A stretch of 64,000 nt of DNA, from positions 26,089,067 to 26,153,066 of the forward strand of contig OX359245.1 of NCBI GenBank assembly GCA_947179485.1, read 5' to 3'. Both the position numbers and the translations under genes were made by a program. Below are positions 17,166 to 35,672 of this stretch, one piece after another (position 1 is the stretch's first letter; each line of letters starts with the position of its first letter). This DNA comes from Allacma fusca (Eukaryota; Arthropoda; Collembola; Symphypleona; Sminthuridae). The notes under the pieces were generated by a model. It was given only the letters and a program-made list of their open reading frames with translations. It was not told where the DNA came from and ran no database searches.

Positions 17166-17748
17166 TGTTACGTGAATGGTATTACCCGGGTATTGATGTT
17201 GTGTGGGTAATAGTCATGTAGCCTAGGTTCGGGTGTTCCATCCCCTGAATTCCTGGAATCCGATGTTGTTGGAAACGCATGAATAAATGGAACTATTGAT
17301 TCTGTTGTGTAGATTCGTTTATAATTAATTGGGCCAATTTATTGTTCCTAGAACTGATACAATTTGCACTGAACAATTAACATTTAACACAAATAGAATT
17401 TGAAGTCTGAATCTCTTCTTCATGAAATCTCCCGATTTCATGTCGCCCCGTCTGCTACCTTTTGAGCTCCATCCCGGAGGGAATGGACTCTAGGTGCGGC
17501 TCCTCTTGATGTTGCTTGCTTGAAGTCGAGATTAGAACTTGTACTTAATCTACGTGTCTTAATCTAAATCTAATCTTATCCTATTCTTAGTTTATTGTTT
17601 ATTAAATAATCTGAATCATTTCCTTTCCTTTACTTATGATTATGTTAGGTCAGCGTTTGGTCTCACGTAGCTTCTGCTTACGACCTTCTAAACTATTTGC
17701 TGACTTAGATTATGCTTATTCTACTCTATTTATAATATATCCGTAACA
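17166..17748 (-). repeat. 3' LTR of the giant retrotransposon
   Basis: 583 bp, matching 45370-45952. On the minus strand TATAAATAG (17734-17726) lies only about 15 nt inside the LTR, implying an unusually short U3. Several AATAAA signals lie further in. Confidence 0.95.
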
Positions 17749-21712: not shown

Positions 21713-24700
21713 CTAATCGTCTTCCTCGGACGGCCCTCTGAGGGTGCCTGTCTCCTCCTCTCCTTCCGCTAGTGTTCGGAATGATATGACTGCGAATCTA
21801 TTCTCGGATAAAATCTCCGGGTCCCATGTTGCTCGTTCTGATCTTTCCCATAACTGATCCATTAGCCTTCTATGCTCCACAGGGTTTGTTATGGAAAGAT
21901 AGCTGGTTCTTTGTTGTGTCACTGGGTCTCTCCTGAGTTCTTCCTGAATAAAATCATGTCCAAGGTCTCGAAAAACTATTTCGATTCCTGTTCGACCTCT
22001 GAGGGTTCGTATGAGATTTATTATATCGGGTTCATCTGGTCTTCCGCCAATGACAACTGATCGCCATTGGGGTGTTTGGAATCGATCTATAGCGCTTGGT
22101 ACCATATGTATTGGTGTTATTCCTGGTCGTCTTTCATTTCTTGGTGATAAATGATATGGTTTGTAACTTGGTCCGTCTCCACGGTTGCTAATTTGCTCCC
22201 GAATCCTGTGAAAATGTTCTCTTTGCCAGATTCGTATCGTGACAAGTTCGTTTAGGTCTCTGAAAGAACCTGTTCTCCGGGGTTGTCTTAGGGTGGCTAC
22301 TCCTCCTTTTAGTTTTCTAGCGTATAGGGTAGTTGGCTTTTGGCCTTCCCCTGCTAGTTTCATTGCGAATATCCAGTCTTCCCATTGTCCTAGTTCTTCT
22401 TCTATGTCGTCTATTGGATTGGGTTGACTTCTGCCGCTTTGGTTCATCGCTCCAAATTGTCGCCACTCCTGAATTGCCTCGTCCTGATGATAAAGAGTTA
22501 TGAGCCTTTCGGTCATACTCGCAAATTCTTGAAAACTTAGCATGTGTATTGGTATACTTGCTAGTTGTTGTAAAGCTTTCTCTCCACGTCCGGTGATGGC
22601 GTCTCCTCTCAGTAGGAAACTATTTATCCATATTTCTTGCTCTCGCCAGGTTGGTTGAGTTCCTATGTCGAACCACATCTGAGTAATTAATCTGCGTAGC
22701 TCTGTTCCCGTGAGCCCTTGCATTACTCCTTGATGTTCCCGACATGTTAGGTATGTTGGTACTTGGTGATTGTCAATACCTCTTTGACCATTGAACAGTG
22801 TTGTCCAAAGTCTCGGTATCATTTCCCCTGGTGAGATGTTCATGTCTCCTGCCATCGTTTCCAGACGGGTGTTTTCCATTGGTACGTTTCTTCGACTTTG
22901 CCCGTATAGGATGAGCAGGTCTCGCTCCCTTGGGTCTAGTCTGCGATAATCTGTGGGATGGTCCATTGCATCATACAGCAATGCCCTTCTTTCCCGGATT
23001 AATTCTCCGTGATTATTGTAGTCCATTCCTGCCTGGTGTTCGGCGTATTCTATATTTGATTCGTGAGCATCTGTTCTAGGTTCGCTTAAAGTGCTAAGCG
23101 CCCTTCGTAACTGCTCGAGTCGTAGTTGAGGTGGTTGGGTGGGTTGTTGGTGGATGTCAAGTCTCTCAATAAATGTCTCCCTGTACATTCTGTTGAGCCA
23201 TCTCACTAGATTTTGCTCTGGACTGTTGGTTGACCGGTGTGAGATATTATATGTTGGAAATCTCTCTGGGTCGATGGTAGATTTCTGGTAACAATGAGGA
23301 CACATGGTGGATCTTTCCCTGGTGTCCATGTTGTTGCTGAAGTAGTTCGTTCTCCTGGAGTACTGCGCTTCTATCTGGCTGTGGCGTTCGTCTCCGGATA
23401 TATCTTCCATCACTTGGTCCGGGAATCTTGGCGGTGGTGAGTGGTCCAATGGGTCATTGGCCCTTTCCACCATCTTTTTCACTTGAAGTCGTACCGGATC
23501 CAGTTGGCTGTATAACTGTGTCTTGTTTGGGTTGGTAAAGATGACTATTTCCGCATCCTCATCTTCCCAACTTGGTGCTACCATCCATCCACGGACTCCT
23601 ATATAAAATGATACGTGAGCTAAATCAACGAATCTTACATCAGGTGAGTCTGGTTGTGCTAGTGGGTCTTCCGGTGCTGGAGCTGGTGGGTTTTCCTGGC
23701 GTTCTTCCTTGAACTCCACCTTTCGTTGCCGTTGTCTAGCTCGTCTGGACTTCAGTTTGTCTTCAATGGGTGGTATAGGTTGTCCCGTTATCGTGGATGG
23801 TCCGGGTGACGGTGACCTTGATCCTCGTCTGTCCCTTGTATCGTTAAATATTACAGTCCTAATGGGTGAGTATACTCTAACCCTGGGTCGTTCACTTTCT
23901 GGCTCTGGACCTCGTCGTCGTCCTCTATACTGGAATGTACAGTTTGGGGCGTTGTCCCTTCCATACAACCTGTCCAACTCGGGTCTACTCCTTCGGATGT
24001 ATTGTACCGGAATGTCCTTTTGTCTTTGCCAAGCTTCATGTGCTGCTAACTTGGTCTTTGGTCGTACGGGTGGCTTATGGCCATGTTTGAGTGGGCAGTA
24101 TTCGCATCTGGTCTGCACCCACTTACTGTCTGTCTCGTTGTCTGACGAACTATCTACCTGATGTTCTAATGGTGGCTTCTCCTCGTCGTCTAAGACCTCT
24201 TCCTTGATTACGTTCAATGATGTTCCGGCTCCTTCTTCTTGCGCCTCCATAGCTTGTTCCGTTGGCACAGCCGGTTCCTCTTCTGAGGTCAAAACCGGTC
24301 CTTCTGCTCCCTCTGTCCTTCGTGGGTGGTTTCTTCCGGGGTCACCTTTCCGTATTGGGTCCTGGTTCCCTCCGAAGTCCATTCCGACGGACGTGCCAAT
24401 ATAGATTACCATTCTGAGGGTAAATCGTACAAGCTGTTGAATAATCCCTGTAGGTCTTCCTGACGATGAGTGAGCCTCCTCTTCCTCGATTCGTGCCAGC
24501 ATAAGCTGTAGCTGTTGTTTTAAGAATTGTTTACTATAACTGACGGGTGACCATGCGTTGGTCGGTCCTACGAATGCATCTCGCCTCTGTCGTTCTCTGG
24601 CTGCTCGTTCCGACGTTCGCTGGAAGAGTGGGTGGGTTTGTGAGACGTTGGCGTGTGCCTTTGTCTCCCATCCCTTAAGTTCTTCTGCTTCGAGATGGTC

Positions 24701-27700
24701 AACTCCGTTGTATATATGTGGTATGAGCAAAACTATCGTCCAGTTTGCTTCTGTGATTGTCGTTGCTAGTGCGAAGTGTACAACTTCACCTATTGCAATT
24801 TCCTCGGTGGGGTGAACATAGTCTTCCCCTTTTGTTATACTGTGAGGGTTGTTTTGGATCTGGCGTTGTAGATCATTTATCTGGTCTTTTGCCAAGATAC
24901 TTCGCCTGGTACGTGTACGTGTGTTCTTAAGTCCCAAAATTTTGATGATTTTGCTGATGAATGTTCCGTACTGTAATTCGTACTCCTTCCAAATTTCGTA
25001 TTCGGTATGTAGGGGTAACGGGATTGTCTTTGTGATTAAGTCCATTGCGACTGACTGTAAAGTTCTTGTTGTAAGGTGGTAACTGTCACGTATTGCCTGT
25101 GACATTAACCAAATGGCTTGCGGCAATTTCCGTTGGTCTCGAATTTTCTGTCTTCGTTCCTCTTCCTCCGAGGTGGGTTCAGGAGCATGTCGTCGCTCTC
25201 TCCCGTTTTCGGATTCTTCCGTGTCCACTTCTTTGCCTAAAGCTTGGTTCCACACTTTGGCTACAGAAGTTTCGTTGAGGTAATGAGCATTCCTTTGGAT
25301 ATCACCTGGTAATGCTATTAAGTTCGGAGATATTTTTGTTGCTGTTGGCTCTTCCTTAAGAAAATCTTCTAACTCTTTTTCCTCACTGGCATTGACGGGC
25401 ATTATCATCCAGATGGGTCGTTGGTCTGGTAATTGGGACTCAATGAGTACCCAGTCCTGTGGTATTTTGACTGTTTTGAGTGGTTTATTCCATCTCCTGA
25501 CTGCGTCTAGGATTGAGCTGGTATAGATTCCTACTATGACCATTCCCGTGGTACACATGCCTACGGCTCCTGCTACTCCTCGTACTACTCCATTCTGCCA
25601 GAGTTGGTGTGCTGTGGCTGAGCCGAAACCTTGGTACCGTACGGCTGAATTTCCGACCGGTGGGCATTCCCGTTGGCCGTAAGGGTCATAGTGTCCGATT
25701 TCCTCTGAGTCTTCCTTATTTTCAAAGTCTAGGCTGACATGGTCAAAGCCTCTTGGACTGGTTAGATTCTCGGTTTCCAATCGGGTCCACCACTGGTAAT
25801 GTGATGCCCGGGTTGTTGGATATGGTCCATAGTGTCCCGTCAATTCCTTTCTCAAGTTGGGTTGTCCTATAGCAGATGTAATTAAACCGAACATTAATAA
25901 AAATGATAACCAACTGTTACCGAGGTAAGGTATGGGTCCTCCTCGTCTTCCTCCTCCTCCACGTCTCATTTCCGGCGTGTGAGGTGGCGTTTGAATTGAT
26001 GAGGTTGACTGTCTTGGTTCCTCGTCGTCACTGAGGATGACGGTTCCGTCCTGGGGTGAATTGGCAAAATCAGCCAATGAAAGCTGATGGTGATTAACAA
26101 TTTCCGTTGTATCTGAAGTTATTGATGATTCTCGATCTTTGGGTCTTCTTTTTGATCTGATCACCTCAAAATCCTCTGAGCTACTGCTCTGGTCGTTGTG
26201 TTGTTCGGCTATAGATAGCTCGGATGTTGCAACTTCGACGTTTTGTGCTGGTGAGGGTGGCGTTTCCGTTGCCATTCCTGTTGGGCTTGCAGTTTCTGGA
26301 CCATTTCGCTTTTCCTGAGCGAGCAAACGCTCTAGCTCTCCGGATGTAGCTGTTGACGTTGGAATGTTCGTTGGTTCAAAATGTGCTGGAGGTAATTCTC
26401 TGGTTTGAAGGTCTATCTTTGACTCAGCACATACCAAGTGAAAGTCGTTATCATTTCTCCACTTTATCCATTCCTGGCGGTGGCGTGCTAGTTCCTTCAT
26501 TAATTCTTCCTTTTGCTTTTTCGCACTGTCTGCATTGACGTTTTGTCTGGCAAGGTTGCGGATGATTTCCCCGAGATCTTTAATTCGGTTTACCATCTCC
26601 TCGTGCTTCCCTGCTTTCCTGGAGTCCTCTCCGATCTTTAGGATGTTTGACTGCCATTTCGCCGGTGGTTGGGTTGGTGCTGTGCTCTGTCCGAATAGCT
26701 CTAAGATGGTCATCTGAGCCTCTTTCTTGACCTTCTTCTCCTTCTTCGCACGTTTCTTTGCATGATGTTCACATTCCTGTTGTACCACTGGTCCACTGTC
26801 GGTTGCAATTACTTGTCGTACCTTCTTACATCCTTTCCTACTACAGGTTTGGATGGGTACTGTCTCTTCCTCTTCTGAGTCTGAAGAGGATTCATTGGCG
26901 GTATCTCTGTCCGCTGTTGTGGCTATTTCCGTGGCTGTTTCTTCGCTCCATAGTATTACTGCTACTGGTGGTGGAGTCACTACAGGTACTTCCACGGGTC
27001 TCTCTCTTTGAGCGATGCAAACTGCACGCTGTGGTTTAGGTGGTTCACTACTGACCGGTATTGTTGGCGGTGGCATCTTTGTGACCGCTGTGTAGCTTAA
27101 AGCTGGAGCTGCTATGGGTGCTGTCAGTATTGACTCTCTTTCCATTCGGTTGTTATGATCTCTCGCCGATGGTGATAGAAATGGTGAAGGTGGTGGGGTT
27201 GACTCTCTCCTGCTCCTTGACCGCGCTGGACTATCATAGCGGCTCCTTGACCTGTCGTCTTCCCGTCGCTTCTTCCTCTCCGATGACGACTCTGTCTCCC
27301 GCTTCCTGGTCCTGCTGTCCTTAGAGCTGTGTCTTTCCCTCGAACTTTCTCTTGAGCTTCTATGATGCCTGCTCGAACTTTCTCCAGTAGTGATGGCCCG
27401 CCCGCGGCCTCTCCCGGCTGGTACCATGTGCGCCGAGTAGGCTGCGAATCTCGGAGGTTCCCTTCGTCGGTCCTCCAAGTTCCCTCGTCTCAGATCGGGT
27501 CCATAGTTATCATCAATACGTCTACTGATTCTATGGGCTACGTCCTCGACCTGTTCTTCATGTTGCGGTAACCATTCACTGATTTCGGGGATGTTGACCC
27601 GGGTAACTCCACAAATAGGGTCGGCTCCCATCACTTTCCGAGATGAGCTTCGACTTGTCTTGCCTCGTTCGTACTGAAGGCTTGGAGTAAATGCCCAGGG

Positions 27701-28282
27701 GTCATGTTCATAATCTCCCCTTGGATTCTTTTGTCCGGGCACATCCTTTTCTTGCCTGTAATTTTGGACTAGCCATGGATCATCTGGCTGTCTGTTACGT
27801 GTTCTACAGATAGGAATCTGTCGTCGTATGGGAGTGGGATTAAATTCTTGCCCTTTAAAAAGGTAAACAAGATCATCTGGCGCTCGCTCGCCTTTGTCTA
27901 CTTCCACCTGCTGCTCCGGAAAATTTATTGACCCGCAAAAGTGCGGTTCTCGTCGTAATATGCGGTAATCTAATGTTAACTCTCTAGGTTTCCTGAGAGC
28001 TCCGATTAGTACTGAATGGGTTACGATTTCTCGTCCATCTCGTCCTTGGATGATAATTCTGTGGGGTAACTTCCCGTCTACTCGGAGAACAACTTCCAGT
28101 CGTCCCGTATCTGAGTTTGGTAAGATTTTTGCTTGTGGTATTTCCACTTCAGTTTGACTCACGTATTGGGTCCAGTAACGTGGTCGATCGTCGTCGTCCC
28201 TGTCGACGGCGGGTAGGGCGTCTTGGCGTGGAGTCTCGTTGGTTCGAGACCCGGATGCACGTGACCCTCTGTTCTCTGACAT
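21713..28282 (-). CDS. ORF3 of the giant retrotransposon, 2189-aa protein of unknown function
   Basis: Uninterrupted from ATG at 28282. I do not recognise a family. Visible parts are: an arginine/serine-rich stretch at about 300-375; a Cys/His cluster (CSRKGCKKV...CEHH) near 470; and an acidic linker. A hydrophobic segment lies at about 783-803 (WLSFLLMFGLITSAIG), which could act as an internal signal or anchor. N-glycosylation sites and a second apolar stretch follow at about 897-927 (GVAGAVGMCTTGMVIVGIY). Furin-like RERR and RTRR sites lie near 1028 and 1127. A third apolar stretch is at about 1276-1300. Further CxxC motifs are near 1389 and 1654. The last 350 residues include FLLRGDA...SFQEFASMTERLITLY, faintly reminiscent of a Gag capsid segment. 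An AG acceptor (TTCAACCAG) directly precedes the ATG, so a spliced subgenomic mRNA is likely. An Env-containing polyprotein is possible but unproven. Confidence 0.75.
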   Translation of the reverse strand: MSENRGSRASGSRTNETPRQDALPAVDRDDDDRPRYWTQYVSQTEVEIPQAKILPNSDTGRLEVVLRVDGKLPHRIIIQGRDGREIVTHSVLIGALRKPRELTLDYRILRREPHFCGSINFPEQQVEVDKGERAPDDLVYLFKGQEFNPTPIRRQIPICRTRNRQPDDPWLVQNYRQEKDVPGQKNPRGDYEHDPWAFTPSLQYERGKTSRSSSRKVMGADPICGVTRVNIPEISEWLPQHEEQVEDVAHRISRRIDDNYGPDLRRGNLEDRRREPPRFAAYSAHMVPAGRGRGRAITTGESSSRHHRSSRESSRERHSSKDSRTRKRETESSSERKKRREDDRSRSRYDSPARSRSRRESTPPPSPFLSPSARDHNNRMERESILTAPIAAPALSYTAVTKMPPPTIPVSSEPPKPQRAVCIAQRERPVEVPVVTPPPVAVILWSEETATEIATTADRDTANESSSDSEEEETVPIQTCSRKGCKKVRQVIATDSGPVVQQECEHHAKKRAKKEKKVKKEAQMTILELFGQSTAPTQPPAKWQSNILKIGEDSRKAGKHEEMVNRIKDLGEIIRNLARQNVNADSAKKQKEELMKELARHRQEWIKWRNDNDFHLVCAESKIDLQTRELPPAHFEPTNIPTSTATSGELERLLAQEKRNGPETASPTGMATETPPSPAQNVEVATSELSIAEQHNDQSSSSEDFEVIRSKRRPKDRESSITSDTTEIVNHHQLSLADFANSPQDGTVILSDDEEPRQSTSSIQTPPHTPEMRRGGGGRRGGPIPYLGNSWLSFLLMFGLITSAIGQPNLRKELTGHYGPYPTTRASHYQWWTRLETENLTSPRGFDHVSLDFENKEDSEEIGHYDPYGQRECPPVGNSAVRYQGFGSATAHQLWQNGVVRGVAGAVGMCTTGMVIVGIYTSSILDAVRRWNKPLKTVKIPQDWVLIESQLPDQRPIWMIMPVNASEEKELEDFLKEEPTATKISPNLIALPGDIQRNAHYLNETSVAKVWNQALGKEVDTEESENGRERRHAPEPTSEEEERRQKIRDQRKLPQAIWLMSQAIRDSYHLTTRTLQSVAMDLITKTIPLPLHTEYEIWKEYELQYGTFISKIIKILGLKNTRTRTRRSILAKDQINDLQRQIQNNPHSITKGEDYVHPTEEIAIGEVVHFALATTITEANWTIVLLIPHIYNGVDHLEAEELKGWETKAHANVSQTHPLFQRTSERAARERQRRDAFVGPTNAWSPVSYSKQFLKQQLQLMLARIEEEEAHSSSGRPTGIIQQLVRFTLRMVIYIGTSVGMDFGGNQDPIRKGDPGRNHPRRTEGAEGPVLTSEEEPAVPTEQAMEAQEEGAGTSLNVIKEEVLDDEEKPPLEHQVDSSSDNETDSKWVQTRCEYCPLKHGHKPPVRPKTKLAAHEAWQRQKDIPVQYIRRSRPELDRLYGRDNAPNCTFQYRGRRRGPEPESERPRVRVYSPIRTVIFNDTRDRRGSRSPSPGPSTITGQPIPPIEDKLKSRRARQRQRKVEFKEERQENPPAPAPEDPLAQPDSPDVRFVDLAHVSFYIGVRGWMVAPSWEDEDAEIVIFTNPNKTQLYSQLDPVRLQVKKMVERANDPLDHSPPPRFPDQVMEDISGDERHSQIEAQYSRRTNYFSNNMDTRERSTMCPHCYQKSTIDPERFPTYNISHRSTNSPEQNLVRWLNRMYRETFIERLDIHQQPTQPPQLRLEQLRRALSTLSEPRTDAHESNIEYAEHQAGMDYNNHGELIRERRALLYDAMDHPTDYRRLDPRERDLLILYGQSRRNVPMENTRLETMAGDMNISPGEMIPRLWTTLFNGQRGIDNHQVPTYLTCREHQGVMQGLTGTELRRLITQMWFDIGTQPTWREQEIWINSFLLRGDAITGRGEKALQQLASIPIHMLSFQEFASMTERLITLYHQDEAIQEWRQFGAMNQSGRSQPNPIDDIEEELGQWEDWIFAMKLAGEGQKPTTLYARKLKGGVATLRQPRRTGSFRDLNELVTIRIWQREHFHRIREQISNRGDGPSYKPYHLSPRNERRPGITPIHMVPSAIDRFQTPQWRSVVIGGRPDEPDIINLIRTLRGRTGIEIVFRDLGHDFIQEELRRDPVTQQRTSYLSITNPVEHRRLMDQLWERSERATWDPEILSENRFAVISFRTLAEGEEETGTLRGPSEEDD

Positions 28283-28475
28283 CTGGTTGAAGATAAAATA
28301 CTTTACAGTAATCTGATCTAATGATTGTGTACGTACCTACGTATCGGATTCTCCTTCGACCTTGTCGTATGAGGTAACTAATGAGATTTATACGGTCTCC
28401 AATCTTGAGATCAATCTCGCTTTGACCAAAACTAACACAGTTTGGTATTGTTGTTAAGTATCTGGTGGTGTTCAT
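28149..28475 (-). CDS. Candidate 108-aa ORF at the Pol/ORF3 junction
   Basis: The ATG (28475-28473) overlaps the stop of the preceding coiled-coil micro-ORF as ATGA, and the frame is that of Pol, just after the Pol stop. The first 46 codons fill the only sequence between Pol and ORF3 (VSFGQSEIDLKIGDRINLIS...); the rest overlaps the start of ORF3 and is very basic (RRPTRRRQGRRR). No family recognised. A good donor (GTAG|GTACGT at 28337/28336) and the ORF3 acceptor delimit a 54-nt in-frame intron-like stretch. Could be a chance frame; the ATGA linkage is the main support. Confidence 0.35.
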   Translation of the reverse strand: MNTTRYLTTIPNCVSFGQSEIDLKIGDRINLISYLIRQGRRRIRYVGTYTIIRSDYCKVFYLQPDVREQRVTCIRVSNQRDSTPRRPTRRRQGRRRSTTLLDPIRESN

Positions 28476-28735
28476 TCGTTTTCAGACTGATCCAAATCTT
28501 CTCGTCCTTTTTCGGGTACGAGTTGGGTATCGTCTACTTTCTCCGATTTCTTCAGCGCTTCCTTCCTGAGGTGTTTCCCCTGCTTCTTTAACTCCCGAAT
28601 TTCCTCCTGAACTTGTTGAAGTTCCTGTTGGATTTGTACTCGTCGGGTTCTGAGGGTCGCTGAATGTCTCTCGGTGCTCTGACGTATTTGTTCTAATTCT
28701 CTCAGGCCTTCTGGGACTGTCTTTCGTGATGACAT
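28472..28735 (-). CDS. Overprinted coiled-coil micro-ORF 5 (87 aa)
   Basis: ATG-initiated, in the +1 frame relative to Pol, within the Pol C-terminal extension. A heptad-patterned helix runs from about residue 10 to 66 (VQIQQELQQVQEEIRELKKQ is central), with an acidic tail. It is the last of five such ORFs in the same frame and its TGA overlaps the ATG of the 108-aa ORF. Function unknown; the amphipathic pattern is the evidence that this frame is selected. Confidence 0.5.
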   Translation of the reverse strand: MSSRKTVPEGLRELEQIRQSTERHSATLRTRRVQIQQELQQVQEEIRELKKQGKHLRKEALKKSEKVDDTQLVPEKGREDLDQSENE

Positions 28736-31700
28736 CCAATGACCTGTCCTCTTCTGTAGAAAATTCTACAGGTATGTTAATGACTTCTGTATGAGTATCT
28801 ACAGAGTCTTGTCCGTTTTCGTCTGTTAGCACTTCTTGGAACTCTTCGTCCTCTTCTGTAGAATTTTCTACAAGGACTTTTCGTTCCTTGGGTTGGTTGA
28901 ATTGTTGGCTAACCTGTTGGCTGCTCGTATCTGATTTTTCAGAATATTCTTGGCTCTCTCGGTTTGTTCTATTTCTCTCTCCACTCGTGCTATTGCCTCT
29001 CTGATCCGACTGCCTTGCGCTTGTAGGCTTTGCAGTGTCTGTCTCTGAGCTTCGCTGGGTGGGCTTGGTGTTGAGTTCCACAAAGGGGGGCTCTTCCAAG
29101 GTCTTTTGCTCATCTGAGTGAAGCAATTGTGTCGAAATATCCGCCTCTACTGAGGGCCAAGGCACCTCAACTCGTGGAGTCGCTTCTGAAGGTCCTTGAT
29201 TTCCTGTTTCAATTTGTCCAGGTCTCCCTCTCTCTGTCGTAGGCGGTTGATTAATTCTCGGTTCTGATCCCGAATTTGAAGAATTTGTCTCTCTACACTC
29301 ACTGCTGTCGTCCACATCAAATTCTGTTGGACTTATCCCTGAACTACTTAATTCTTTAAGTGTTTTAAAGTCACTCTCGTCAATAAATGGTTGAGTTTCT
29401 TCCTCACCTTCGGATATTACACCTGAGCTATTTTCAGCTGGTTTATTAAATCCGAAATATCTTCTTTGGCTTTCTGAGTTTCCTGGAGGGTTGCTTTGTG
29501 ATCTCCCTCGAGTTGTTTCAATTTGTTCAGTATTTCCTGTTGTTCCGAAATCTGATGTAAAATTCTTTGTTTGAGACGAATTTCGTTCTCTTTTGCCTTG
29601 ATTAATTGGGCTTGTAATCCCTGGATGATTAGGATTAATTCTCTCTTTGTGTGTGTCATCAGTTACTCTGGTTGAACCTCGTCTTGTGATTTCTCCACTT
29701 GTGGGCAGAAACTTGACGTTTGAGGTTTTGTCTCCTGAATTAGCAGTTCTAAGTCTGCGATTCTCTGTTTGATGTACTCTTCCTGAGCTGCGTACTTCCA
29801 AATTTTTATTTGGACTAAATTCCTCTGTTGTTTCAATCCCCTTATCTCGTCCCTGATTTCCTCTAGGGTGTTCATTTACTTTCGAGCGAGTGAAATATGG
29901 GTAATTTTTATCTAAAAATTCCCGATTATCTGAATAATTTTCTGACGAAAATTTTCTTGCTTGTGTACTTGACTGCTTAGTAGTACCTTTTCTTCCCTGA
30001 ATATTATCCTTGTGTTGATGTGGTCCCTGGTTTGATTTCCCTCCTTCACTTGGGGTGATTTGAGAGTGTGAGTAATTTTTGTCACAAAATTCTCCTCTCT
30101 GTTGTACTGGCTGAGCTTGGTCACTTGAACTGTCTGAGCAATTTTCGGATGAAAATTCTCTAGTTATTTCCTCGGTTTGAGCAGGTTGAACTTTAAAAGT
30201 CACCTTCTTGCTCGTAGTTGCACTGTTATCTGAACTGGTCGAATTCTTAAGAATTGACCGTGGCTGACTCACTGTAACTTTTCCACACTTGTTCCAATTT
30301 CGTTTTGTTACCAATTCCACTATATCGGAATCTAAATCGTAACTATACTCGTCCTCAATGTGTTCTCGCTGCAGGCACTTCTTAAGCCTTTCCACATGGA
30401 CTTTCTGTCTCTTTTTAGAATTCCTAAGGTCTTGAATGATATAATTGTCTTTGGCTAAAACTTCTATGACTACAAAGGGTCCTTTGTAAGGGTGAAGAAA
30501 GCGTTCGCTCTTTCCAACTATCCTGGTCGGTGTAAAGACTCGCACTGTGTCTCCGATGTTGAATTTAACGAACCTTCTTTTCCTATCATACCAATCCTTA
30601 CTGTAGTCCTGACGTTCCCTTATCTTAGCAATGGCTTTTTCTATTCTAGTAGTGGCTTCCTCAGCACTCATAAAATTTGTGTCGATGCTGCTTAAACACA
30701 GTTGTAAGTTAAAATCATATATGGGTTGTCGCCTAAACATCATAAAATAAGGAGTTTCTTTGGTCACGTCATGGTGACTGCAATTGTAAGCATTTATTAG
30801 AAACGGTAAACAACTGCACCATAATGCTTGCTCTTTTTGAGTATAATGACTCAGCATAGTGCTTATAGTCTGGACCATTCTTTCTATTTGTCCAACACTA
30901 TTATGTCTTAGTGCTGTAGATGTAGAATGGTTCATGCCTAATCTGCGAAGTAATGCTTGAGTGATTTCCGCTCTGAATTCGGATCCTCCGTCACTCAGCA
31001 AGTTTTTAAACAGTCCGTATTTTAAAACTACTTTGTGAAGCAAAAACTCTGCTATCCTGTCAGCAGTTTTATCTGGAATTGCTTCTGCGATCACGAACTT
31101 TGAAACATAATCCTGTGCGATTATAATGTACTTATTCCCTTTTATGCTAATTTGCATGGGTCCAATGAGATCAATACATAATGCATCTCCTACATTTTCT
31201 ATCCTGATTGGATGAAGTAGTCCTGCTGGCTTCATTCTCATGGATTTAGCTGCTTGGCAACTTTCACATGACATGACATATTTTGCTACTGAGACGTTCA
31301 TTTTTCTCCAAAAATAATTTTTGTTGAGTCTATGAAGAGTTTTCTGGAATCCTAAATGTCCTCCGCATAGGATCCCATCATGAGCTTTTGATAGTAGGAA
31401 ATTTCTAAGTACTCGGGGTACGTATAACTTACGTCCATCTTTATGTACTATAGTAAGAATCCCTTCTTCATCAATTTCATATCGGCTATACTTTTCTTTG
31501 TCCTTCCAATTTAACGTATGCCGCATCTTTATTTTGTCCATGATGAATAAACAATCTGGATCGTCCCTTTGCATCTCCTGCATGTTATGTTCCTTTAACA
31601 TAGTAACTTGCTCTTCATCTTCAAGTATCCTACACACAGGCTTGTGTGTGGAAAAAATATCTTTGCTCCCTTCGCACCCCTGTAGTGCGTGAGCTCCTGG

Positions 31701-34700
31701 AACAAATTTTATTGCTCTATTTAATGACATGTCCTCAGTTTTCTGAGCGTCTTTATTCCTTTGGTCTTCATCCTGTGAAAGACATAGTGAATGTGACGTC
31801 TTTTTACTTGTCACAACACCCTGCCCTTTCAGAGGTTGAATCTTCCATGATCTTCCATCGGTGAATTTAATTTCACCTTCCCGGATATTTTTCCTCAGCT
31901 CTTCTACTGTGGTCGCCAGTAGAGAGTAATTATTTTTATTAACTGGATTCTCTGTGGATATGTACGTATGCGACGGCGGAGGGTTTTTGTTTTCCTCCGA
32001 CTCGCATGCTGCAGATCTTCGTTGGATATTTTTCATCCATTCATCCACATCTCTGGAAATCTTCATCGCCTTGATCCGCTGTGGGGTATCAAGATCCGGA
32101 TTGTTAGCATATCCTGGACTTTCTGCATCAGGAACTTGATCAGTCTTCCTGGCAGATTGTGCAGTGTATGTCTTCAATTGCGAAATAACTTCCTGTTTGA
32201 GCTTCCATTCGTCACCTTTTGCTGGAGTTGGATTCCTCCAAGCTTCTTCAAATGCAAACCATTTCTCCTCATCTGTGGGATCGTGTCCGGATGGAATGTG
32301 ATTTTCCACACTGAACTTTTCCTGTCTCAGTGTCGGTCGGTCGCATTCCTTTTGGACGTTCCTATCTTCATCCGTGAGTACCAATTTCTTGGCCTCTTTA
32401 GGACTGGCGGGATGGGTGGGCGGGTTAGTTGAGGACTTCTTTTGTGTAGTCTCAGCTGCCTGGCTCACCAGATCCGCTGTCTCCTGATTCTTCAAAGTTT
32501 GATCATGGACTTCCGTATCGGAGTCTACAATTATGGCTGGTGGTAGATGTACAGCTTTAGTTTCAGCCTCACCTGCCCCATCCATTGTTGTGAATTCCAT
32601 TGTACTCCGTGTCATCTGCCCTAGGGATTTTGGTGAGTCAATGTCGACCTTCCCATTGGCTAAACTTTGTGACGTTGTTGCTGCCGTTGACTTTGGGGTA
32701 GGAGACCAATCCGTCCCCATTCCAATGTCAATGATAGTATTTCTGTCAAAATCTTCATTCTCATTTTGAACTTTATCTGGTGATAAAAATTCCTTCATGT
32801 CTAGTTCATTTATTGTAGCATTGTGTAGCTCTATTTCCTGTATTAGTTTGAGATTTTTCTCGTAGATATACTCATTGGTGTATTTCCAGATATTTTCATC
32901 CTCTTGTGGATCATCCTCCCGAAATTCGTGGATTATAATGATGTCATCGACGGATAATTTCCATTCTTTGAGCGCTGAGTAGCTGTGTGTAACTTCATTA
33001 ACACAGCTCTTTACGCTCATTGTATGGTTCTCCCAATCCGTTTCCTCCAAATTCGGTTGAGGTACTAAAATTTCCACTTGTGGTTTGACTTTTCGCCTGG
33101 GTTGACCTTTCAATCTCCCTGACCATGGATTTTGTCGCTGTGGGATTATGGCTTCCTCTTCGTCTGAGGATTGGCTTTCGTCATCCGGCCAGTATTTTCC
33201 CTTATAGCTTTCCCTGGTCGTAAGGCTGGCTGCACACGCTGGTGGTGGCATTGTTATGTTCCCCTGAGGGATTTGTTTTTGCTCTTCCAAAGCGATTTTG
33301 TGCTCTTTGACCGGATCTGGGTCAAATTCGATCACTCGGTCCTCTGTATCTTCCAAATCTTCCTTTGTATAGGGTAGTGGAGCTCTGGATAGAAAATCTG
33401 CATCCAAGTGTAAAGCTCCTTTCTTGTATGTAACTTGAAAGTCAAATTCCTGTAGTTTATTTACAAACTTACTTATCCGGTGGTTTGGATCTTTTTGTAA
33501 TCGTAGGTAGCATAACGCTAAATGATCTGATCTGATTAAAAATTTTCTCAAATAAAGATACTGTCTGAATTTGCGAACTGCATATACGACTGCTGCTAGT
33601 TCTAATTCTGTGACTGAATAATTCTTTTCTGACTGAATTAGTGTCCTTGAAGCATAAGCTATTGGATGTTCTCCTCCATCATCTTGAAGTATACAGCATC
33701 CTAGTCCTGAGATTGATGCATCTGTATGTAGTATGCAATCCAACTCTGGATTGAAATGAGCTAGGACTGGCTGTGTCATTAACTTGGTTTTGAGAATGTT
33801 GAAGGCAATTGTTGCGTCTGCACTCCATTGGAAGCATCTTATGCGTTTTTGTCCCTCAGACTTCCCTTTGCTTTCAATCCATGATTGAGAGATGGGACTA
33901 GCAATTTTTGCGAAGTCCTTGATGTATTTTCTATAGAAACTGCATATTCCGAAAAATCTTCTTGCTTCTGTTTCGGATTTTGGTACTGGCACATGTCTAA
34001 TAGCGTCCACCTTTGCAGGATCTGGACTGGTGCCTTCCCTGGATACTTTGAATCCTAAAACAATCACTTCAAAATATCCGAATTTGCATTTCTTTGGCTT
34101 GAACTTAAAGTTCTTGTTGCTGGCTCTTAACATCAATTCTTCGAGAGATGCTAATTTGTCCAAAAGATGAATTCCGTAAGAGATTACATCATCTAAATAT
34201 ACCATGGCTCCCCTAAATTTGAGTGAGCCCAGCATTTGATCTGCTGCTCGCTGAAAAGCTGACGGTGCAATCTTGACTCCCATAGGTAGTCGTTTGAATG
34301 CATATAATCCATCCTGTGTGATGAAAGAGGTTATGACTTGGTCATCCTCATGTATTAATAATTGAAAGAAGCCTGACTCCATGTCAAGAGTGTCGAAAAT
34401 TGCAGATTTTCCAAATTGCATAAGTATGTCATCTATTCTTGCTAAAGGGTAAACTTGATCTGTGATGGTTTTGTTTAACGCTCGATAATCCACAACTGAT
34501 CTAAATGTTCCGTCTTTCTTCTTGATAAGAAATAGTGGACTGCTGTAAGGTCCGTTTACTTCCTTGATGATGTCTGCATCTAGCATCTTTTGTACTTCTT
34601 CTCGTACTTTTTGTCGCTCCATAGGTGAGCAAGGGAAAGGTTTTGCCTGAACGGGTGGATTATTTCCCGTATGAATCCGAATGGGATCAATCCACGCTGG

Positions 34701-35672
34701 TTCTTTCAAATCTCCCTTGTTAAATGCGAAACATTCTGGATATCTTGTCAATAATGCTCGGTACTTAGCTCTTCCTTCTTCATCGAGCTCTTCATTGACG
34801 TCGAAACAATCGAGCTGTTCTTGTGTGAGCCTTTTATGAGCATCACGTAATTGATTGCGTTTAATTTTGATGAGATCAAAATTTTCCTCAGCATGACCTA
34901 TAGCTGTACGTCCATACATTGTTTGTGGGCATGGAGCTGGATTAAATACATATGCGAAAGGTTCTTCATTTGGTACTACACCTGCGGCTACTAAAATTCG
35001 CTTGCTGGTGTAAAGCTTTTCTGATGGTTGCAAATAAAAATCCTTTTTGATACGTTTTGGAATTTGTATGGGCACTTTCATGTGTCCATAGGCTGGTATT
35101 GTGACTGCTTTTCGAGTCCTGCACATCATGTTCTTCGGTCCTTTGACTTCATGAAATGAAAATATTGACCTGACAAATTCTATGTCGGCCTTCTTCTCTC
35201 CGACGTAGAGATGAGTGTCCCTAGTCATTGGAACTGTTTGAAATCGGTCACTCCGTATTTCATTATTCTTGTAATCCAACGTTATTCCGTAGCGTGATAA
35301 AAGATCTTCACCTATAATCATTCGTGGCTCTAGCGTTTCCATCACTAGACCTTTGAATAAAAGTTTTTCACCTTCAATCATCATTGTGAATTTGGTGAGA
35401 CAAATTGGTTTTACCAATTCTGCATTTGCTACTGCTACTCGCAGGGCGCTTGGAACTTCTTTTATTTCCGCACATCTGGGTACTAAGTTTCTTTGGATAC
35501 AGGATCTTGTTGCTCCTGAATCTAGTAAAGCTGGTATCATCATACTGCATATTTGTACTTGTAAAGTGGACTTGTTGCCGTTTGATAAACGACATGGGTT
35601 GAGATCAATAATTTCTAATTCTTCGTCGTCTTTTGACTGACTTTTTACTCTAGTTGCTATAATTGCATTCAT
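28482..35672 (-). CDS. pol: Pol polyprotein: protease, reverse transcriptase, RNase H, integrase
   Basis: The 2396 codons counted from the internal Met at 35672 stay open upstream to the frameshift site (35720), so the natural product is Gag-Pol. Protease: LLDSGATRSCI at about 49-59 and IIGEDLL at 119-125. RT: about 350-545 with LPMG and YLDD (492-495). RNase H: about 615-765 with TDAS, E690 and SDH. Integrase: H1431, H1439, C1469, C1472, and a D1501, D1561, E1597 triad with exactly 35 residues between the last two. The domain order is Ty3/gypsy. Two oddities are a hydrophilic insert of about 600 residues between RNase H and integrase (770-1370) and a Ser/Thr/Gln-rich C-terminal extension of about 620 residues (1775-2396), within which five coiled-coil ORFs are overprinted. 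All catalytic residues are present. Confidence 0.93.
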   Translation of the reverse strand: MNAIIATRVKSQSKDDEELEIIDLNPCRLSNGNKSTLQVQICSMMIPALLDSGATRSCIQRNLVPRCAEIKEVPSALRVAVANAELVKPICLTKFTMMIEGEKLLFKGLVMETLEPRMIIGEDLLSRYGITLDYKNNEIRSDRFQTVPMTRDTHLYVGEKKADIEFVRSIFSFHEVKGPKNMMCRTRKAVTIPAYGHMKVPIQIPKRIKKDFYLQPSEKLYTSKRILVAAGVVPNEEPFAYVFNPAPCPQTMYGRTAIGHAEENFDLIKIKRNQLRDAHKRLTQEQLDCFDVNEELDEEGRAKYRALLTRYPECFAFNKGDLKEPAWIDPIRIHTGNNPPVQAKPFPCSPMERQKVREEVQKMLDADIIKEVNGPYSSPLFLIKKKDGTFRSVVDYRALNKTITDQVYPLARIDDILMQFGKSAIFDTLDMESGFFQLLIHEDDQVITSFITQDGLYAFKRLPMGVKIAPSAFQRAADQMLGSLKFRGAMVYLDDVISYGIHLLDKLASLEELMLRASNKNFKFKPKKCKFGYFEVIVLGFKVSREGTSPDPAKVDAIRHVPVPKSETEARRFFGICSFYRKYIKDFAKIASPISQSWIESKGKSEGQKRIRCFQWSADATIAFNILKTKLMTQPVLAHFNPELDCILHTDASISGLGCCILQDDGGEHPIAYASRTLIQSEKNYSVTELELAAVVYAVRKFRQYLYLRKFLIRSDHLALCYLRLQKDPNHRISKFVNKLQEFDFQVTYKKGALHLDADFLSRAPLPYTKEDLEDTEDRVIEFDPDPVKEHKIALEEQKQIPQGNITMPPPACAASLTTRESYKGKYWPDDESQSSDEEEAIIPQRQNPWSGRLKGQPRRKVKPQVEILVPQPNLEETDWENHTMSVKSCVNEVTHSYSALKEWKLSVDDIIIIHEFREDDPQEDENIWKYTNEYIYEKNLKLIQEIELHNATINELDMKEFLSPDKVQNENEDFDRNTIIDIGMGTDWSPTPKSTAATTSQSLANGKVDIDSPKSLGQMTRSTMEFTTMDGAGEAETKAVHLPPAIIVDSDTEVHDQTLKNQETADLVSQAAETTQKKSSTNPPTHPASPKEAKKLVLTDEDRNVQKECDRPTLRQEKFSVENHIPSGHDPTDEEKWFAFEEAWRNPTPAKGDEWKLKQEVISQLKTYTAQSARKTDQVPDAESPGYANNPDLDTPQRIKAMKISRDVDEWMKNIQRRSAACESEENKNPPPSHTYISTENPVNKNNYSLLATTVEELRKNIREGEIKFTDGRSWKIQPLKGQGVVTSKKTSHSLCLSQDEDQRNKDAQKTEDMSLNRAIKFVPGAHALQGCEGSKDIFSTHKPVCRILEDEEQVTMLKEHNMQEMQRDDPDCLFIMDKIKMRHTLNWKDKEKYSRYEIDEEGILTIVHKDGRKLYVPRVLRNFLLSKAHDGILCGGHLGFQKTLHRLNKNYFWRKMNVSVAKYVMSCESCQAAKSMRMKPAGLLHPIRIENVGDALCIDLIGPMQISIKGNKYIIIAQDYVSKFVIAEAIPDKTADRIAEFLLHKVVLKYGLFKNLLSDGGSEFRAEITQALLRRLGMNHSTSTALRHNSVGQIERMVQTISTMLSHYTQKEQALWCSCLPFLINAYNCSHHDVTKETPYFMMFRRQPIYDFNLQLCLSSIDTNFMSAEEATTRIEKAIAKIRERQDYSKDWYDRKRRFVKFNIGDTVRVFTPTRIVGKSERFLHPYKGPFVVIEVLAKDNYIIQDLRNSKKRQKVHVERLKKCLQREHIEDEYSYDLDSDIVELVTKRNWNKCGKVTVSQPRSILKNSTSSDNSATTSKKVTFKVQPAQTEEITREFSSENCSDSSSDQAQPVQQRGEFCDKNYSHSQITPSEGGKSNQGPHQHKDNIQGRKGTTKQSSTQARKFSSENYSDNREFLDKNYPYFTRSKVNEHPRGNQGRDKGIETTEEFSPNKNLEVRSSGRVHQTENRRLRTANSGDKTSNVKFLPTSGEITRRGSTRVTDDTHKERINPNHPGITSPINQGKRERNSSQTKNFTSDFGTTGNTEQIETTRGRSQSNPPGNSESQRRYFGFNKPAENSSGVISEGEEETQPFIDESDFKTLKELSSSGISPTEFDVDDSSECRETNSSNSGSEPRINQPPTTERGRPGQIETGNQGPSEATPRVEVPWPSVEADISTQLLHSDEQKTLEEPPFVELNTKPTQRSSETDTAKPTSARQSDQRGNSTSGERNRTNRESQEYSEKSDTSSQQVSQQFNQPKERKVLVENSTEEDEEFQEVLTDENGQDSVDTHTEVINIPVEFSTEEDRSLDVITKDSPRRPERIRTNTSEHRETFSDPQNPTSTNPTGTSTSSGGNSGVKEAGETPQEGSAEEIGESRRYPTRTRKRTRRFGSV
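28754..28771. repeat. Palindrome CTGTAGAA-AA-TTCTACAG
   Basis: A perfect 8-bp inverted repeat with a 2-nt centre, inside the Pol extension. A relative with the same GTCCTCTTCTGTAGAA lead-in lies at 28857-28872. Confidence 0.7.
28857..28872. repeat. Palindrome TGTAGA-ATTT-TCTACA
   Basis: A 6-bp perfect inverted repeat, about 100 bp from the related palindrome at 28754-28771. In Pol both encode a V-x-V-E-x-S-T-E-E-D repeat. Confidence 0.65.
28868..29113 (-). CDS. Overprinted coiled-coil micro-ORF 4 (81 aa)
   Basis: ATG-initiated, +1 frame to Pol. A Pro-rich start (residues 1-20) precedes a long amphipathic helix (about 21-68, containing IREAIARVEREIEQTERAK). TAG stop. The upstream micro-ORF 3b ends 33 nt before its ATG. 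In Pol the same DNA encodes low-complexity polar sequence, so the heptad pattern is more likely the constrained reading. Confidence 0.5.
   Translation of the reverse strand: MSKRPWKSPPLWNSTPSPPSEAQRQTLQSLQAQGSRIREAIARVEREIEQTERAKNILKNQIRAANRLANNSTNPRNEKSL
29147..29317 (-). CDS. Overprinted coiled-coil micro-ORF 3b (56 aa)
   Basis: ATG at 29317, TAG at 29149-29147, same +1 frame as its neighbours. Residues 8-50 are an almost continuous heptad helix (QILQIRDQNRELINRLRQRE is the first half, then LDKLKQEIKDLQKRLHELR), followed by a short CLGPQ tail. Fifty-six codons with strict Leu/Ile spacing in a frame overprinting polar Pol sequence are hard to explain by chance. Confidence 0.5.
   Translation of the reverse strand: MWTTAVSVERQILQIRDQNRELINRLRQREGDLDKLKQEIKDLQKRLHELRCLGPQ
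29417..29659 (-). CDS. Overprinted coiled-coil micro-ORF 3 (80 aa)
   Basis: The ATG lies one codon (CTG) after the TAA of micro-ORF 2, in the same +1 frame. Essentially the whole product is coiled coil: LILIIQGLQAQLIKAKENEI, then RILHQISEQQEILNKLKQLE and ISDLINQLK. The tight spacing suggests reinitiation or a shared mRNA. No family recognised. Confidence 0.5.
   Translation of the reverse strand: MTHTKRELILIIQGLQAQLIKAKENEIRLKQRILHQISEQQEILNKLKQLEGDHKATLQETQKAKEDISDLINQLKIAQV
29663..29875 (-). CDS. Overprinted coiled-coil micro-ORF 2 (70 aa)
   Basis: ATG at 29875, TAA at 29665-29663, +1 frame to Pol. The first 48 residues form a heptad helix (LEEIRDEIRGLKQQRNLVQI, then YIKQRIADLELLIQE); the tail is Pro/Gln/Ser-rich. 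It is the first of the coiled-coil series. The open frame upstream (30124-29912) starts with GTG and shows no heptads, so I exclude it. Confidence 0.5.
   Translation of the reverse strand: MNTLEEIRDEIRGLKQQRNLVQIKIWKYAAQEEYIKQRIADLELLIQETKPQTSSFCPQVEKSQDEVQPE
29899..29923. repeat. 25-nt hairpin, copy 1 (GGG/CCC arm)
   Basis: GGG, bulged T, AATTTTTA, short loop, TAAAAATT, CCC. One of four hairpins with the same layout at 29899, 29932, 30070 and 30136. Confidence 0.65.
29932..29956. repeat. 25-nt hairpin, copy 2 (GAA/TTC arm)
   Basis: GAA, bulged T, AATTTTC, TGAC loop, GAAAATT, TTC. The outer arm differs from the other copies on both sides, so pairing is kept. Confidence 0.65.
30070..30094. 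repeat. 25-nt hairpin, copy 3 (GAG/CTC arm)
   Basis: GAG, bulged T, AATTTTTG, short loop, CAAAATT, CTC. One extra T makes the inner arm slightly imperfect. Confidence 0.6.
30136..30160. repeat. 25-nt hairpin, copy 4 (GAG/CTC arm)
   Basis: GAG, bulged C, AATTTTC, GGAT loop, GAAAATT, CTC. In Pol the four hairpins encode a repeated E/K-F-x-x-E/K-N motif. Confidence 0.65.

What the first reader, a model, noticed from the sequence alone, without database searches (positions are those of the whole stretch)
28472..29875. Five coiled-coil micro-ORFs overprinted in one frame inside the Pol tail
Seen: five successive ATG-started ORFs (29875-29663, 29659-29417, 29317-29147, 29113-28868, 28735-28472), all in the +1 frame to Pol, each with long Leu/Ile heptad helices. 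The Pol frame over the same DNA is disordered Ser/Thr/Gln-rich sequence. Inference: the overlapping frame is the constrained one and encodes a set of small coiled-coil proteins, an organisation I know of in no retroelement.
Basis: partly seen in the sequence, partly recalled or inferred. Interest (0 to 1): 0.9.

Follow-up and report, generated by a model that had tools for sequence, protein, structure and literature searches.

The report
Five hidden genes inside retrotransposon polymerase
A giant mobile element in a springtail hides five small coiled-coil protein genes in a second reading frame of its polymerase gene, and comparison of many copies suggests that evolution protects the hidden proteins there rather than the polymerase sequence.

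Summary
The element is a 28.8-kb Ty3/gypsy-type LTR retrotransposon; the host genome matches the springtail Allacma fusca. In 64 kb and six frames, the only strong heptad helices are the five micro-ORFs; codon shuffles never approach them. In the 40 best-scoring genomic copies all five ORFs keep start, frame and stop. Inside them, changes silent in the micro-ORF frame but altering Pol outnumber the opposite kind 112:37; outside it is 45:77. Micro-ORF-frame stops: 0 seen, 13.7 expected. Three other long overlapping open frames lack this signal. So five real small coiled-coil proteins are overprinted. New here: in the window copy the zone's only seven sense ATGs are the starts of the five ORFs, a sixth ORF (m6) and ORF3, all in weak context in 40 of 40 copies, and 4,007 nt of Gag lack any sense ATG. 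The likely mechanism is scanning-dependent polycistronic translation, as in tungroviruses. Expression, the mRNA and the function are not shown.

The parts
17166..17748 (-). 3' LTR, 583 nt, TGTTACG...CGTAACA
   Evidence: 100% identical to the other LTR over 583 nt; 4-nt target duplication ATAC
45370..45952 (-). 5' LTR, 583 nt
35693..42259 (-). Gag ORF, 2188 aa; CCHC knuckle near the C-terminus
   Evidence: Gag frame constrained among copies in the part compared
37292..41295 (-). ATG desert inside Gag: no sense ATG in any frame between ATG 41298 and ATG 37291
   Evidence: 0 observed, 22.4 expected by codon shuffle, 0 of 1000 shuffles as low; 10 of 18 other copies also have none, the rest one to three; new ATGs 10 against 27.3 expected
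35693..37291 (-). Gag-frame ORF beginning at the first ATG after the desert: 532 aa, capsid/nucleocapsid part
   Evidence: zf-CCHC E 8e-5 (above cut-off), Retrotrans_gag E 0.023 (below cut-off); the ATG is present in all 18 copies compared
28482..35672 (-). Pol ORF, 2396 aa: PR, RT, RNase H, integrase, then a tail of about 630 aa
29663..29875 (-). m1, 70-aa coiled-coil micro-ORF in the +1 frame of Pol
   Evidence: intact in 40 of 40 copies; alt-frame omega-like ratio 0.19
29417..29659 (-). m2, 80-aa coiled-coil micro-ORF, ATG 3 nt after the m1 stop codon
   Evidence: 40 of 40; ratio 0.33; one helix 5-79, pLDDT 96.4
29147..29317 (-). m3, 56-aa coiled-coil micro-ORF
   Evidence: 40 of 40; ratio 0.23
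28868..29113 (-). m4, 81-aa coiled-coil micro-ORF
   Evidence: 40 of 40; ratio 0.32
28472..28735 (-). m5, 87-aa coiled-coil micro-ORF; its stop overlaps the m6 start (ATGA)
   Evidence: 40 of 40; ratio 0.61, not significant alone
28149..28475 (-). m6, 108-aa ORF with Arg-rich C-terminus; its 3' part overlaps ORF3
   Evidence: intact in 39 of 40 copies; non-overlapping part N 15/954 against S 26/401
28283..30396 (-). start-codon desert of the Pol tail: ATGs only at the starts of m1-m6, with the ORF3 ATG as the next one
   Evidence: 32 of 40 copies have exactly seven ATGs up to and including the ORF3 start, seven have 8 and one has 9
29318..29416 (-). gap m2-m3, where the Pol frame is the constrained one
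   Evidence: Pol position-3 sites vary most; gaps pooled: Pol ratio 0.53, alt 1.42
28736..28867 (-). gap m4-m5, where the Pol frame is the constrained one
21713..28282 (-). ORF3, 2189 aa, no family match; AG directly before its ATG lies in an acceptor-like sequence
   Evidence: no Pfam match, no homologue among 7968 candidates scored; acceptor score at the 99.5th percentile of my own scale
20415..21146 (-). ORF4, 243 aa
   Evidence: only a weak Pfam match below cut-off

Best explanation
The tail of Pol in this giant Ty3/gypsy-type retrotransposon is dual-coding DNA. In its +1 frame lie five separate genes, each read from its own ATG to its own stop, each encoding a 56-87 aa protein that is mostly one amphipathic coiled-coil helix. 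Selection alternates along the DNA: the micro-ORF frame is protected within the five ORFs, the Pol frame between them, and Pol inside the ORFs is mainly kept open as a disordered extension. The selection pattern is shown; that the proteins are made is inferred from it. Also inferred: they are translated one after another by scanning ribosomes (leaky scanning past weak AUGs, plus reinitiation) on an RNA nearly free of other AUGs, on the way to m6 and ORF3. Further inferred: the proteins act by pairing with each other, with element proteins or with host coiled-coil proteins, as accessory factors.
For: Helices beyond chance. Five ORFs intact in 40 of 40 copies. Changes silent in the alt frame and altering Pol, against the reverse: 112:37 inside, 45:77 outside, Fisher p = 2e-10; the direction holds with a 12-type mutation spectrum, inside the ORFs in every frequency class (50:17, 21:5, 41:15) and in 19 disjoint copy pairs (201:43 inside, 96:164 outside; pairs are not fully independent). 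Alt-frame stops 0 against 13.7 expected. The ATGs do not vary; the two variable stop-codon sites turn one stop into another. Constraint reaches the non-helical N-terminal parts (alt nonsynonymous 5 against 17.5 expected) and more weakly the C-terminal parts (19 against 25.9). Three control overlapping frames and the Gag desert show the opposite pattern. Scanning: seven ATGs in 2.1 kb, all ORF starts, all in weak context in 40 of 40 copies; ATG is the most depleted triplet in both deserts against codon shuffles; new ATGs among copies are fewer than expected, 7 against 20.4 in the Pol tail and 10 against 27.3 in Gag; no existing ATG was lost in the Pol-tail zone.
Against: No transcript, ribosome or peptide data were available. 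With the Pol protein held fixed, the Pol tail's ATG count is not unusual (5 against 7.2 +/- 1.7 in the +1 frame; 145 of 1000 synonymous shuffles as low), so its depletion lies in the choice and order of Pol residues; the Gag desert does survive that control. New ATGs in the Pol tail have only the third-lowest ratio, after GGT and TGT. Weak context is common in this frame of Pol anyway (30 of 62 other ATGs). No acceptor or promoter that would bring ribosomes to m1 was identified, and four ATGs lie between the nearest strong acceptor-like site (30733) and the desert. Reinitiation after ORFs of 56-87 codons is usually inefficient (recalled). m5 alone is not significant. All copies are one young family, the 40 best-scoring of 154 candidates; no divergent relative with the same layout was found, and the Pol tails of four other Ty3-type places in the genome lack such helices.
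Confidence: 0.75

Rival explanations
1. The five helices are exons of one larger spliced coiled-coil protein, as CERV of the nematode element Cer1 is assembled from exons in two frames.
For: CERV is encoded by a spliced five-exon mRNA with one exon in a frame of its own (PMC10309623, passages). All five helices share one frame.
Against: Each segment has its own invariant ATG and a stop kept as a stop in 40 of 40 copies, with stop-to-stop swaps in m2 and m3; constraint extends beyond the helices, more clearly on the N-terminal than on the C-terminal side; acceptor-like sites before m1-m5 are no better than before other ATGs.
Confidence: 0.09
2. The micro-ORFs are only a chain of regulatory upstream ORFs that throttles ORF3 translation; the peptides themselves do nothing.
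For: They lie just upstream of ORF3 with weak AUGs in an ATG-poor leader-like zone.
Against: Amino-acid sequence is conserved (ratio 0.35); helix cores a/d vary at 8 of 75 sites against 42 of 186 other helix sites (sums over, no test run); heptads far beyond shuffles. Regulation as a second role is not excluded.
Confidence: 0.08
3. Each micro-ORF has its own spliced mRNA, as lentiviral accessory genes do.
For: AG directly before the m4 ATG and an acceptor-like site 18 nt before the m5 ATG.
Against: Best acceptor scores upstream of m1-m5 are 0.4, 0.3, -1.7, 1.7 and 2.2; other ATGs of the element have median 1.1. It does not explain why ATGs are missing inside and between the ORFs.
Confidence: 0.16
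4. The pattern is a by-product of base composition and codon bias in an A-rich, Ser/Thr/Gln-rich Pol tail, with copies too young to show selection.
For: A-rich DNA in this frame yields Leu/Ile/Glu/Lys/Gln; all scored copies are 96% or more identical; the number of ATGs alone is explained once the Pol protein is held fixed.
Against: Codon and synonymous shuffles of the helices, opposite substitution pattern inside and outside the ORFs, controls in the same element and in four other Pol tails.
Confidence: 0.01

Closest known systems
Rice tungro bacilliform virus and badnaviruses: leaky scanning through AUG-free ORFs (PMC5902531, PMC3542737, passages read)
   Same: Reverse-transcribing element; consecutive ORFs reached past weak AUGs in a stretch without internal AUGs.
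   Different: There about 895-900 nt; here 2.1 kb with six small ORFs, five overprinted on Pol, plus 4.0 kb AUG-free within Gag; animal LTR retrotransposon; mechanism not tested here.
Overprinted viral genes nested in a polymerase, such as the envelope ORF in the hepadnaviral P gene (PMC5604429, start of abstract in a search listing only)
   Same: Accessory protein(s) encoded in another frame of the polymerase.
   Different: One long gene there; here five separate small coiled-coil genes in one frame, with Pol protected only between them.
Cer1 CERV protein of C. elegans (PMC10309623, passages read)
   Same: LTR retrotransposon with an extra protein using another frame and having a predicted leucine zipper.
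   Different: One 517-aa spliced protein, not five separate ATG-to-stop ORFs inside Pol.
Burro giant gypsy elements of planarians (PMC6431247, passages read)
   Same: Giant animal gypsy-type LTR element with large excess coding capacity.
   Different: One giant ORF1 polyprotein with Gag, Env and Pol and captured domains; here separate Gag, Pol and ORF3 and 583-nt LTRs; no overprinting mentioned in the passages read.
Bdelloid rotifer LTR elements whose ORF3 carries a coiled-coil domain (PMC5408684, passages read)
   Same: Coiled-coil accessory ORFs in LTR retrotransposons.
   Different: A separate third ORF there; no overlap with pol is mentioned (the term 'overlap' has no occurrence in that text).

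Membership tests
Ty3/gypsy-type LTR retrotransposon | Direct LTRs beginning TG and ending CA with target duplication | tested here: met
   583 nt, identical, TGTTACG...CGTAACA, ATAC duplication
Ty3/gypsy-type LTR retrotransposon | Pol order protease - RT - RNase H - integrase | tested here: met
   (the rve match is just under its cut-off, 32.2 against 32.6 bits; the other integrase domains pass)
Ty3/gypsy-type LTR retrotransposon | Gag with capsid and CCHC knuckle | tested here: inconclusive
   zf-CCHC above cut-off; Retrotrans_gag E 0.023, below its cut-off
Ty3/gypsy-type LTR retrotransposon | RT phylogeny inside the Ty3 group | not tested
   no tree built; best listed protein hits carry the same domain set
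Burro elements | Single giant ORF1 polyprotein containing Gag, Env and Pol | tested here: not met
   Gag, Pol and ORF3 are separate ORFs
Overprinted (overlapping) genes | Second frame under purifying selection in its own right | tested here: met
   ratio 0.35 inside against 1.33 outside; stops 0 against 13.7; m5 singly not significant
Overprinted (overlapping) genes | First frame also under purifying selection over the overlap | tested here: inconclusive
   Pol amino acids free inside (1.81); Pol-tail frame open in 39 of 40 copies
Overprinted (overlapping) genes | Both proteins shown to be made | not testable with these tools
   no RNA or protein data
Tungrovirus-like leaky scanning | No AUGs other than ORF starts over the scanned stretch | tested here: met
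   met in the window copy and in 32 of 40 copies by count; unusual against codon shuffles, not against synonymous shuffles
Tungrovirus-like leaky scanning | Weak context at the AUGs to be bypassed | tested here: met
   all seven weak in 40 of 40 copies; weak elsewhere: 94 of 307 ATGs of the region, 30 of 62 in the same frame of Pol
Tungrovirus-like leaky scanning | A capped RNA delivering ribosomes upstream of the first AUG | tested here: inconclusive
   no convincing acceptor between 30396 and 29876
Lentivirus-like accessory genes | Own splice acceptor before each ORF | tested here: not met
   scores typical of other ATGs (recalled frequencies, own scoring)

The most novel reading that the evidence does not exclude
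An animal LTR retrotransposon has evolved a battery of five different coiled-coil microproteins inside one frame of its polymerase gene and cleared its RNA of start codons to express them, and a shorter capsid protein from inside Gag, by ribosome scanning. Selection hops between the two frames along the same DNA, so the polymerase tail is largely the by-product of hidden genes. No retroelement known to me is organised this way.
Probability: 0.42. Interest if true: 0.92.

Novelty: new variant of a known kind. Interest (0 to 1): 0.86.

Why it matters
Overlapping genes are routine in small viral genomes, where space is usually given as the reason. Here they occur in a 28.8-kb element for which space is hardly limiting, five times over, with a clear alternation of which frame is protected. 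That makes the element a natural test case for how overprinting arises and is maintained. The start-codon deserts, above all 4 kb in Gag, suggest that animal LTR retrotransposons may use plant-pararetrovirus-like scanning translation. Standard repeat annotation would not be expected to report either feature.

Tried and rejected
Chance from composition: rejected for the helices; for the ATG counts it is rejected in Gag but, in the Pol tail, only against codon shuffles and not against synonymous shuffles. Mutation bias or youth of copies: rejected. The method giving a false signal in any open alternative frame: rejected with two longer ATG-started ORFs in Gag and a 121-codon open run in ORF3 and with the Gag desert. 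Own splice acceptors for each micro-ORF: not supported (that scale uses recalled base frequencies). Known protein families: m1 and m2 have almost no Pfam matches; m3, m4 and m5 have weak ones, many of them coiled-coil families; none of those shown reaches its cut-off (25 of 30 shown for m3). m2 has no homologue in the protein collection (the other four were not searched there). PDB sequence matches of m2 and m5 are weak, best E 0.48 and 0.044 (m1, m3, m4 not searched). Relatives: no close Pol relative among the 120 listed of 306, none for ORF3 among 7968 candidates scored, none in viral contigs, from which near records may be left out. Pol tails at four other Ty3-type places of the same genome (of 29 listed) carry no such helices in the three sense frames; one of the four does not match our Pol at E 1e-3 in the stretch fetched, and two have ATG-free gaps of 586 and 507 nt just after their open frame. 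m6 structure: low confidence, pLDDT 51.7. Possible homology among the five proteins: m2-m3 E about 2e-6 in an uncorrected comparison, which coil composition can explain; left open. Corrections: the merged-zone site counts printed are wrong through a script slip, and one search replaces them. An earlier count said 31 copies have seven ATGs; one search shows 32 of 40. An earlier count said 11 of 18 copies have no ATG in the Gag desert; one search shows 10 of 18. On rechecking I lowered two odds (best explanation 0.78 to 0.75, novel case 0.45 to 0.42) and raised two rivals by 0.01 because of the synonymous-shuffle result and the frame-specific rate of weak contexts.
Full report
What the element is. 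The finding lies in an LTR retrotransposon on the minus strand. The LTRs are 583 nt and identical, end in TG...CA, and are flanked by a 4-nt duplication; LTR to LTR the element spans 17166-45952, about 28.8 kb. In order it carries Gag (2188 aa), Pol (2396 aa, with protease, RT, RNase H and integrase, then about 630 aa of tail), ORF3 (2189 aa, no known family) and ORF4. The host genome has 392,743,791 bases in 91 contigs. Of the six contigs on which the fetched copies lie, four agree to the printed digit with the chromosome table of the springtail Allacma fusca, and one of these, 66,084,411, is exactly the published scaffold N50; the other two are a few kb shorter than published, and the published assembly has 95 scaffolds and 392,786,974 bases (PMC10427803, passages read). 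The species is inferred from these numbers.

The observation. In the Pol-tail zone (Pol residues 1921-2396) the +1 frame holds five heptad segments with summed score 41.5. In 200 codon shuffles the mean was 0.3 and the maximum 6.6; in 200 synonymous shuffles, which keep the Pol protein as it is, the mean was 2.7 and the maximum 13.1; the +2 frame scores zero. Over all six frames of the 64-kb window these five are the only segments scoring 7 or more. The heptad score is my own simple scheme, not a published program. AlphaFold2 gives m2 as one helix with pLDDT 96.4. The +1 frame has only five Met codons in the zone and each is the start of one ORF; random placement of five Met codons put one into each leader in 3 of 2,000,000 trials.

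Selection. The search scored 40 of 154 candidate places, at 96 to 100% identity including the window copy; being the best-scoring ones, they are likely the youngest. I fetched the other 39. All 40 keep all five ORFs intact from ATG to stop; 39 of 40 keep m6; 39 of 40 keep the Pol-tail frame open. Counting each distinct change once against the window copy, inside the five ORFs 112 changes are silent in the micro-ORF frame while altering Pol, and 37 are the reverse; outside (gaps plus upstream Pol) the numbers are 45 and 77 (Fisher p = 2e-10). With a 12-type mutation spectrum the nonsynonymous-to-synonymous ratio of the micro-ORF frame is 0.35 inside and 1.33 outside, that of Pol 1.81 inside and 0.59 outside; stops created in the micro-ORF frame are 0 against 13.7 expected inside and 14 against 13.8 outside. 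By ORF the micro-ORF ratio is 0.19, 0.33, 0.23, 0.32 and 0.61; the first four are significant singly (p from 1.3e-4 to 3.6e-3), m5 is not (p = 0.15). Inside the ORFs the asymmetry is present for changes seen in one copy (50:17), in two or three (21:5) and in four or more (41:15); outside, the three classes give 20:33, 13:14 and 12:30. In 19 disjoint pairs of copies it is 201:43 inside and 96:164 outside. The ATGs do not vary; one stop-codon site varies in m2 and one in m3, each to another stop. Constraint is clear in the N-terminal parts outside the helices (5 nonsynonymous against 17.5 expected) and weaker in the C-terminal parts (19 against 25.9). The helix cores vary less (8 of 75 a/d sites) than other helix sites (42 of 186; sums over, no test run).

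Controls. The same counting was run on the Gag desert (18 of 20 fetched copies usable), on two ATG-started overlapping ORFs in Gag longer than any of the five (114 and 110 aa; 18 of 20 copies) and on a 121-codon overlapping open run in ORF3 (20 of 20). In all four the main frame is the constrained one: main-altering/alt-silent against main-silent/alt-altering changes were 103 against 419, 3 against 35, 1 against 25 and 5 against 32. So an open overlapping frame as such does not produce the signal. Tail ends at four other Ty3-type places of the same genome, two of them with open frames of about 700 codons from the integrase part onwards, have no heptad segments.

Start-codon deserts. Looking at how ribosomes could reach these ORFs, I found that the sense strand from 30396 to 28270 of the window copy has seven ATGs in all three frames together: the five micro-ORF starts, the start of m6 (its ATG overlapping the m5 stop as ATGA) and the start of ORF3. 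Thirty-two of 40 copies also have seven, seven have eight and one has nine. The Pol tail should have about 17 ATGs in the +1 frame by codon shuffling; it has 5, and 0 of 1000 shuffles were as low. But if the Pol protein is held fixed and only synonymous codons are shuffled, 7.2 are expected and 145 of 1000 shuffles are as low: the avoidance, if selected, works through which Pol residues stand next to each other. ATG is the most depleted of the 64 triplets there against codon shuffles. New ATGs among the copies are 7 against 20.4 expected, third-lowest of the triplets after GGT and TGT, and none of the existing ones was lost. All seven starts have weak context, neither a purine at -3 nor G at +4, in 40 of 40 copies; elsewhere 94 of 307 ATGs of the region, and 30 of 62 in the same frame of Pol, are weak. 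A second desert in Gag is stronger evidence. It runs 4,007 nt from 41298 to 37291 with no sense ATG in any frame, against 22.4 expected; the minimum was 11 in 1000 codon shuffles and 8 in 1000 synonymous shuffles. CAT, the same word on the other strand, occurs 50 times. Ten of 18 other copies also have none, the rest one to three, and new ATGs are 10 against 27.3 expected, the lowest ratio of all triplets (one of the ten is counted at a site changed in 14 copies, most of which, cannot hold the ATG, presumably because a neighbouring base differs). The first ATG after the desert is in the Gag frame and would start a 532-aa protein holding the capsid-like and zinc-knuckle part.

Mechanism. Elongating ribosomes do not respond to AUGs in other frames; scanning ones do. 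A long stretch without AUGs, and weak context at those that remain, is what is known from rice tungro bacilliform virus, where ORFs I and II lack internal AUGs over about 900 nt and ORF III is reached by leaky scanning (PMC5902531 and PMC3542737, passages read). I therefore propose that an RNA whose 5' part covers the Pol tail is scanned, with each micro-ORF taking a share of the ribosomes, possibly helped by reinitiation at the two tight junctions (m1 to m2, and m5 to m6). That step is inferred. The RNA itself is not identified: an acceptor-like sequence stands directly before the ORF3 ATG, so ORF3 may have its own spliced mRNA, but none stands convincingly upstream of m1. What the proteins do is not known. 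Small coiled coils without another domain suggest oligomer-forming accessory factors; Gag, Pol and ORF3 contain only one weak coil segment each (scores 4.5, 5.0 and 4.8), so partners are more likely the five themselves or host proteins. This is inference.

Origin. Because the +2 frame of the Pol tail is full of stops (43 in the zone), the +1 frame is the only other sense frame able to host overlapping ORFs, which explains why all five share it. Whether Pol extended over older coil genes or the coil genes arose within a Pol tail cannot be settled without divergent relatives; none was found.

Novelty. Full-text searches of open-licence papers returned no title or abstract start that reports coiled-coil ORFs overprinted in a retroelement pol (listings of 16 of 16, 10 of 10, 15 of 46, 8 of 23, 10 of 113 and 1 of 1 papers); subscription papers are not covered. 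Overprinting and leaky scanning are known kinds; five in one frame of an animal LTR element, with frame-alternating selection and ATG-poor stretches of 2 and 4 kb, is a new variant.

Noticed in passing
41298-37291 (-): 4,007-nt stretch of Gag without any sense ATG in three frames, largely maintained among copies; the first ATG after it would start a 532-aa capsid/nucleocapsid protein.
   Followed up: partly
28475-28149 (-): m6, a 108-aa ORF with Arg-rich C-terminus between Pol and ORF3, intact in 39 of 40 copies and conserved as protein; start overlaps the m5 stop (ATGA), 3' part overlaps ORF3.
   Followed up: partly
28283 (-): Acceptor-like sequence with AG directly before the ORF3 ATG.
   Followed up: partly
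42849 and 42261 (-): Donor-like sequences, AAGGTGAGT in the ATG-free 686-nt stretch before Gag and CAGGTATGG overlapping the Gag start codon.
   Followed up: no
33350-31430 (-), approximate: Pol has about 640 residues between RNase H and integrase (775-1414); residues of about 845-1340 match none of the 45 relatives printed. Its alternative frames show neither ATG depletion nor strong heptads.
   Followed up: partly
L024 and L025 (G000:C1, about 24.82 and 24.79 Mb): Probably the identical pair of Pol tails (each 84 differences from the window copy; smallest pairwise distance 0), 28,192 nt apart, about one element minus one LTR: possibly a tandem pair sharing an LTR. The Gag stretch expected upstream of one of them (L065) did not match.
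   Followed up: no
15001-15900 and 48142-48999, approximate: Two similar stretches, 88-90% identical in the same orientation, lie on either side of the element; perhaps an older repeat into which it inserted.
   Followed up: no
60406-62799 (+): 797-aa ORF with DUF1759 and a weak aspartyl-protease match, as in BEL/Pao-type elements (family name recalled).
   Followed up: no
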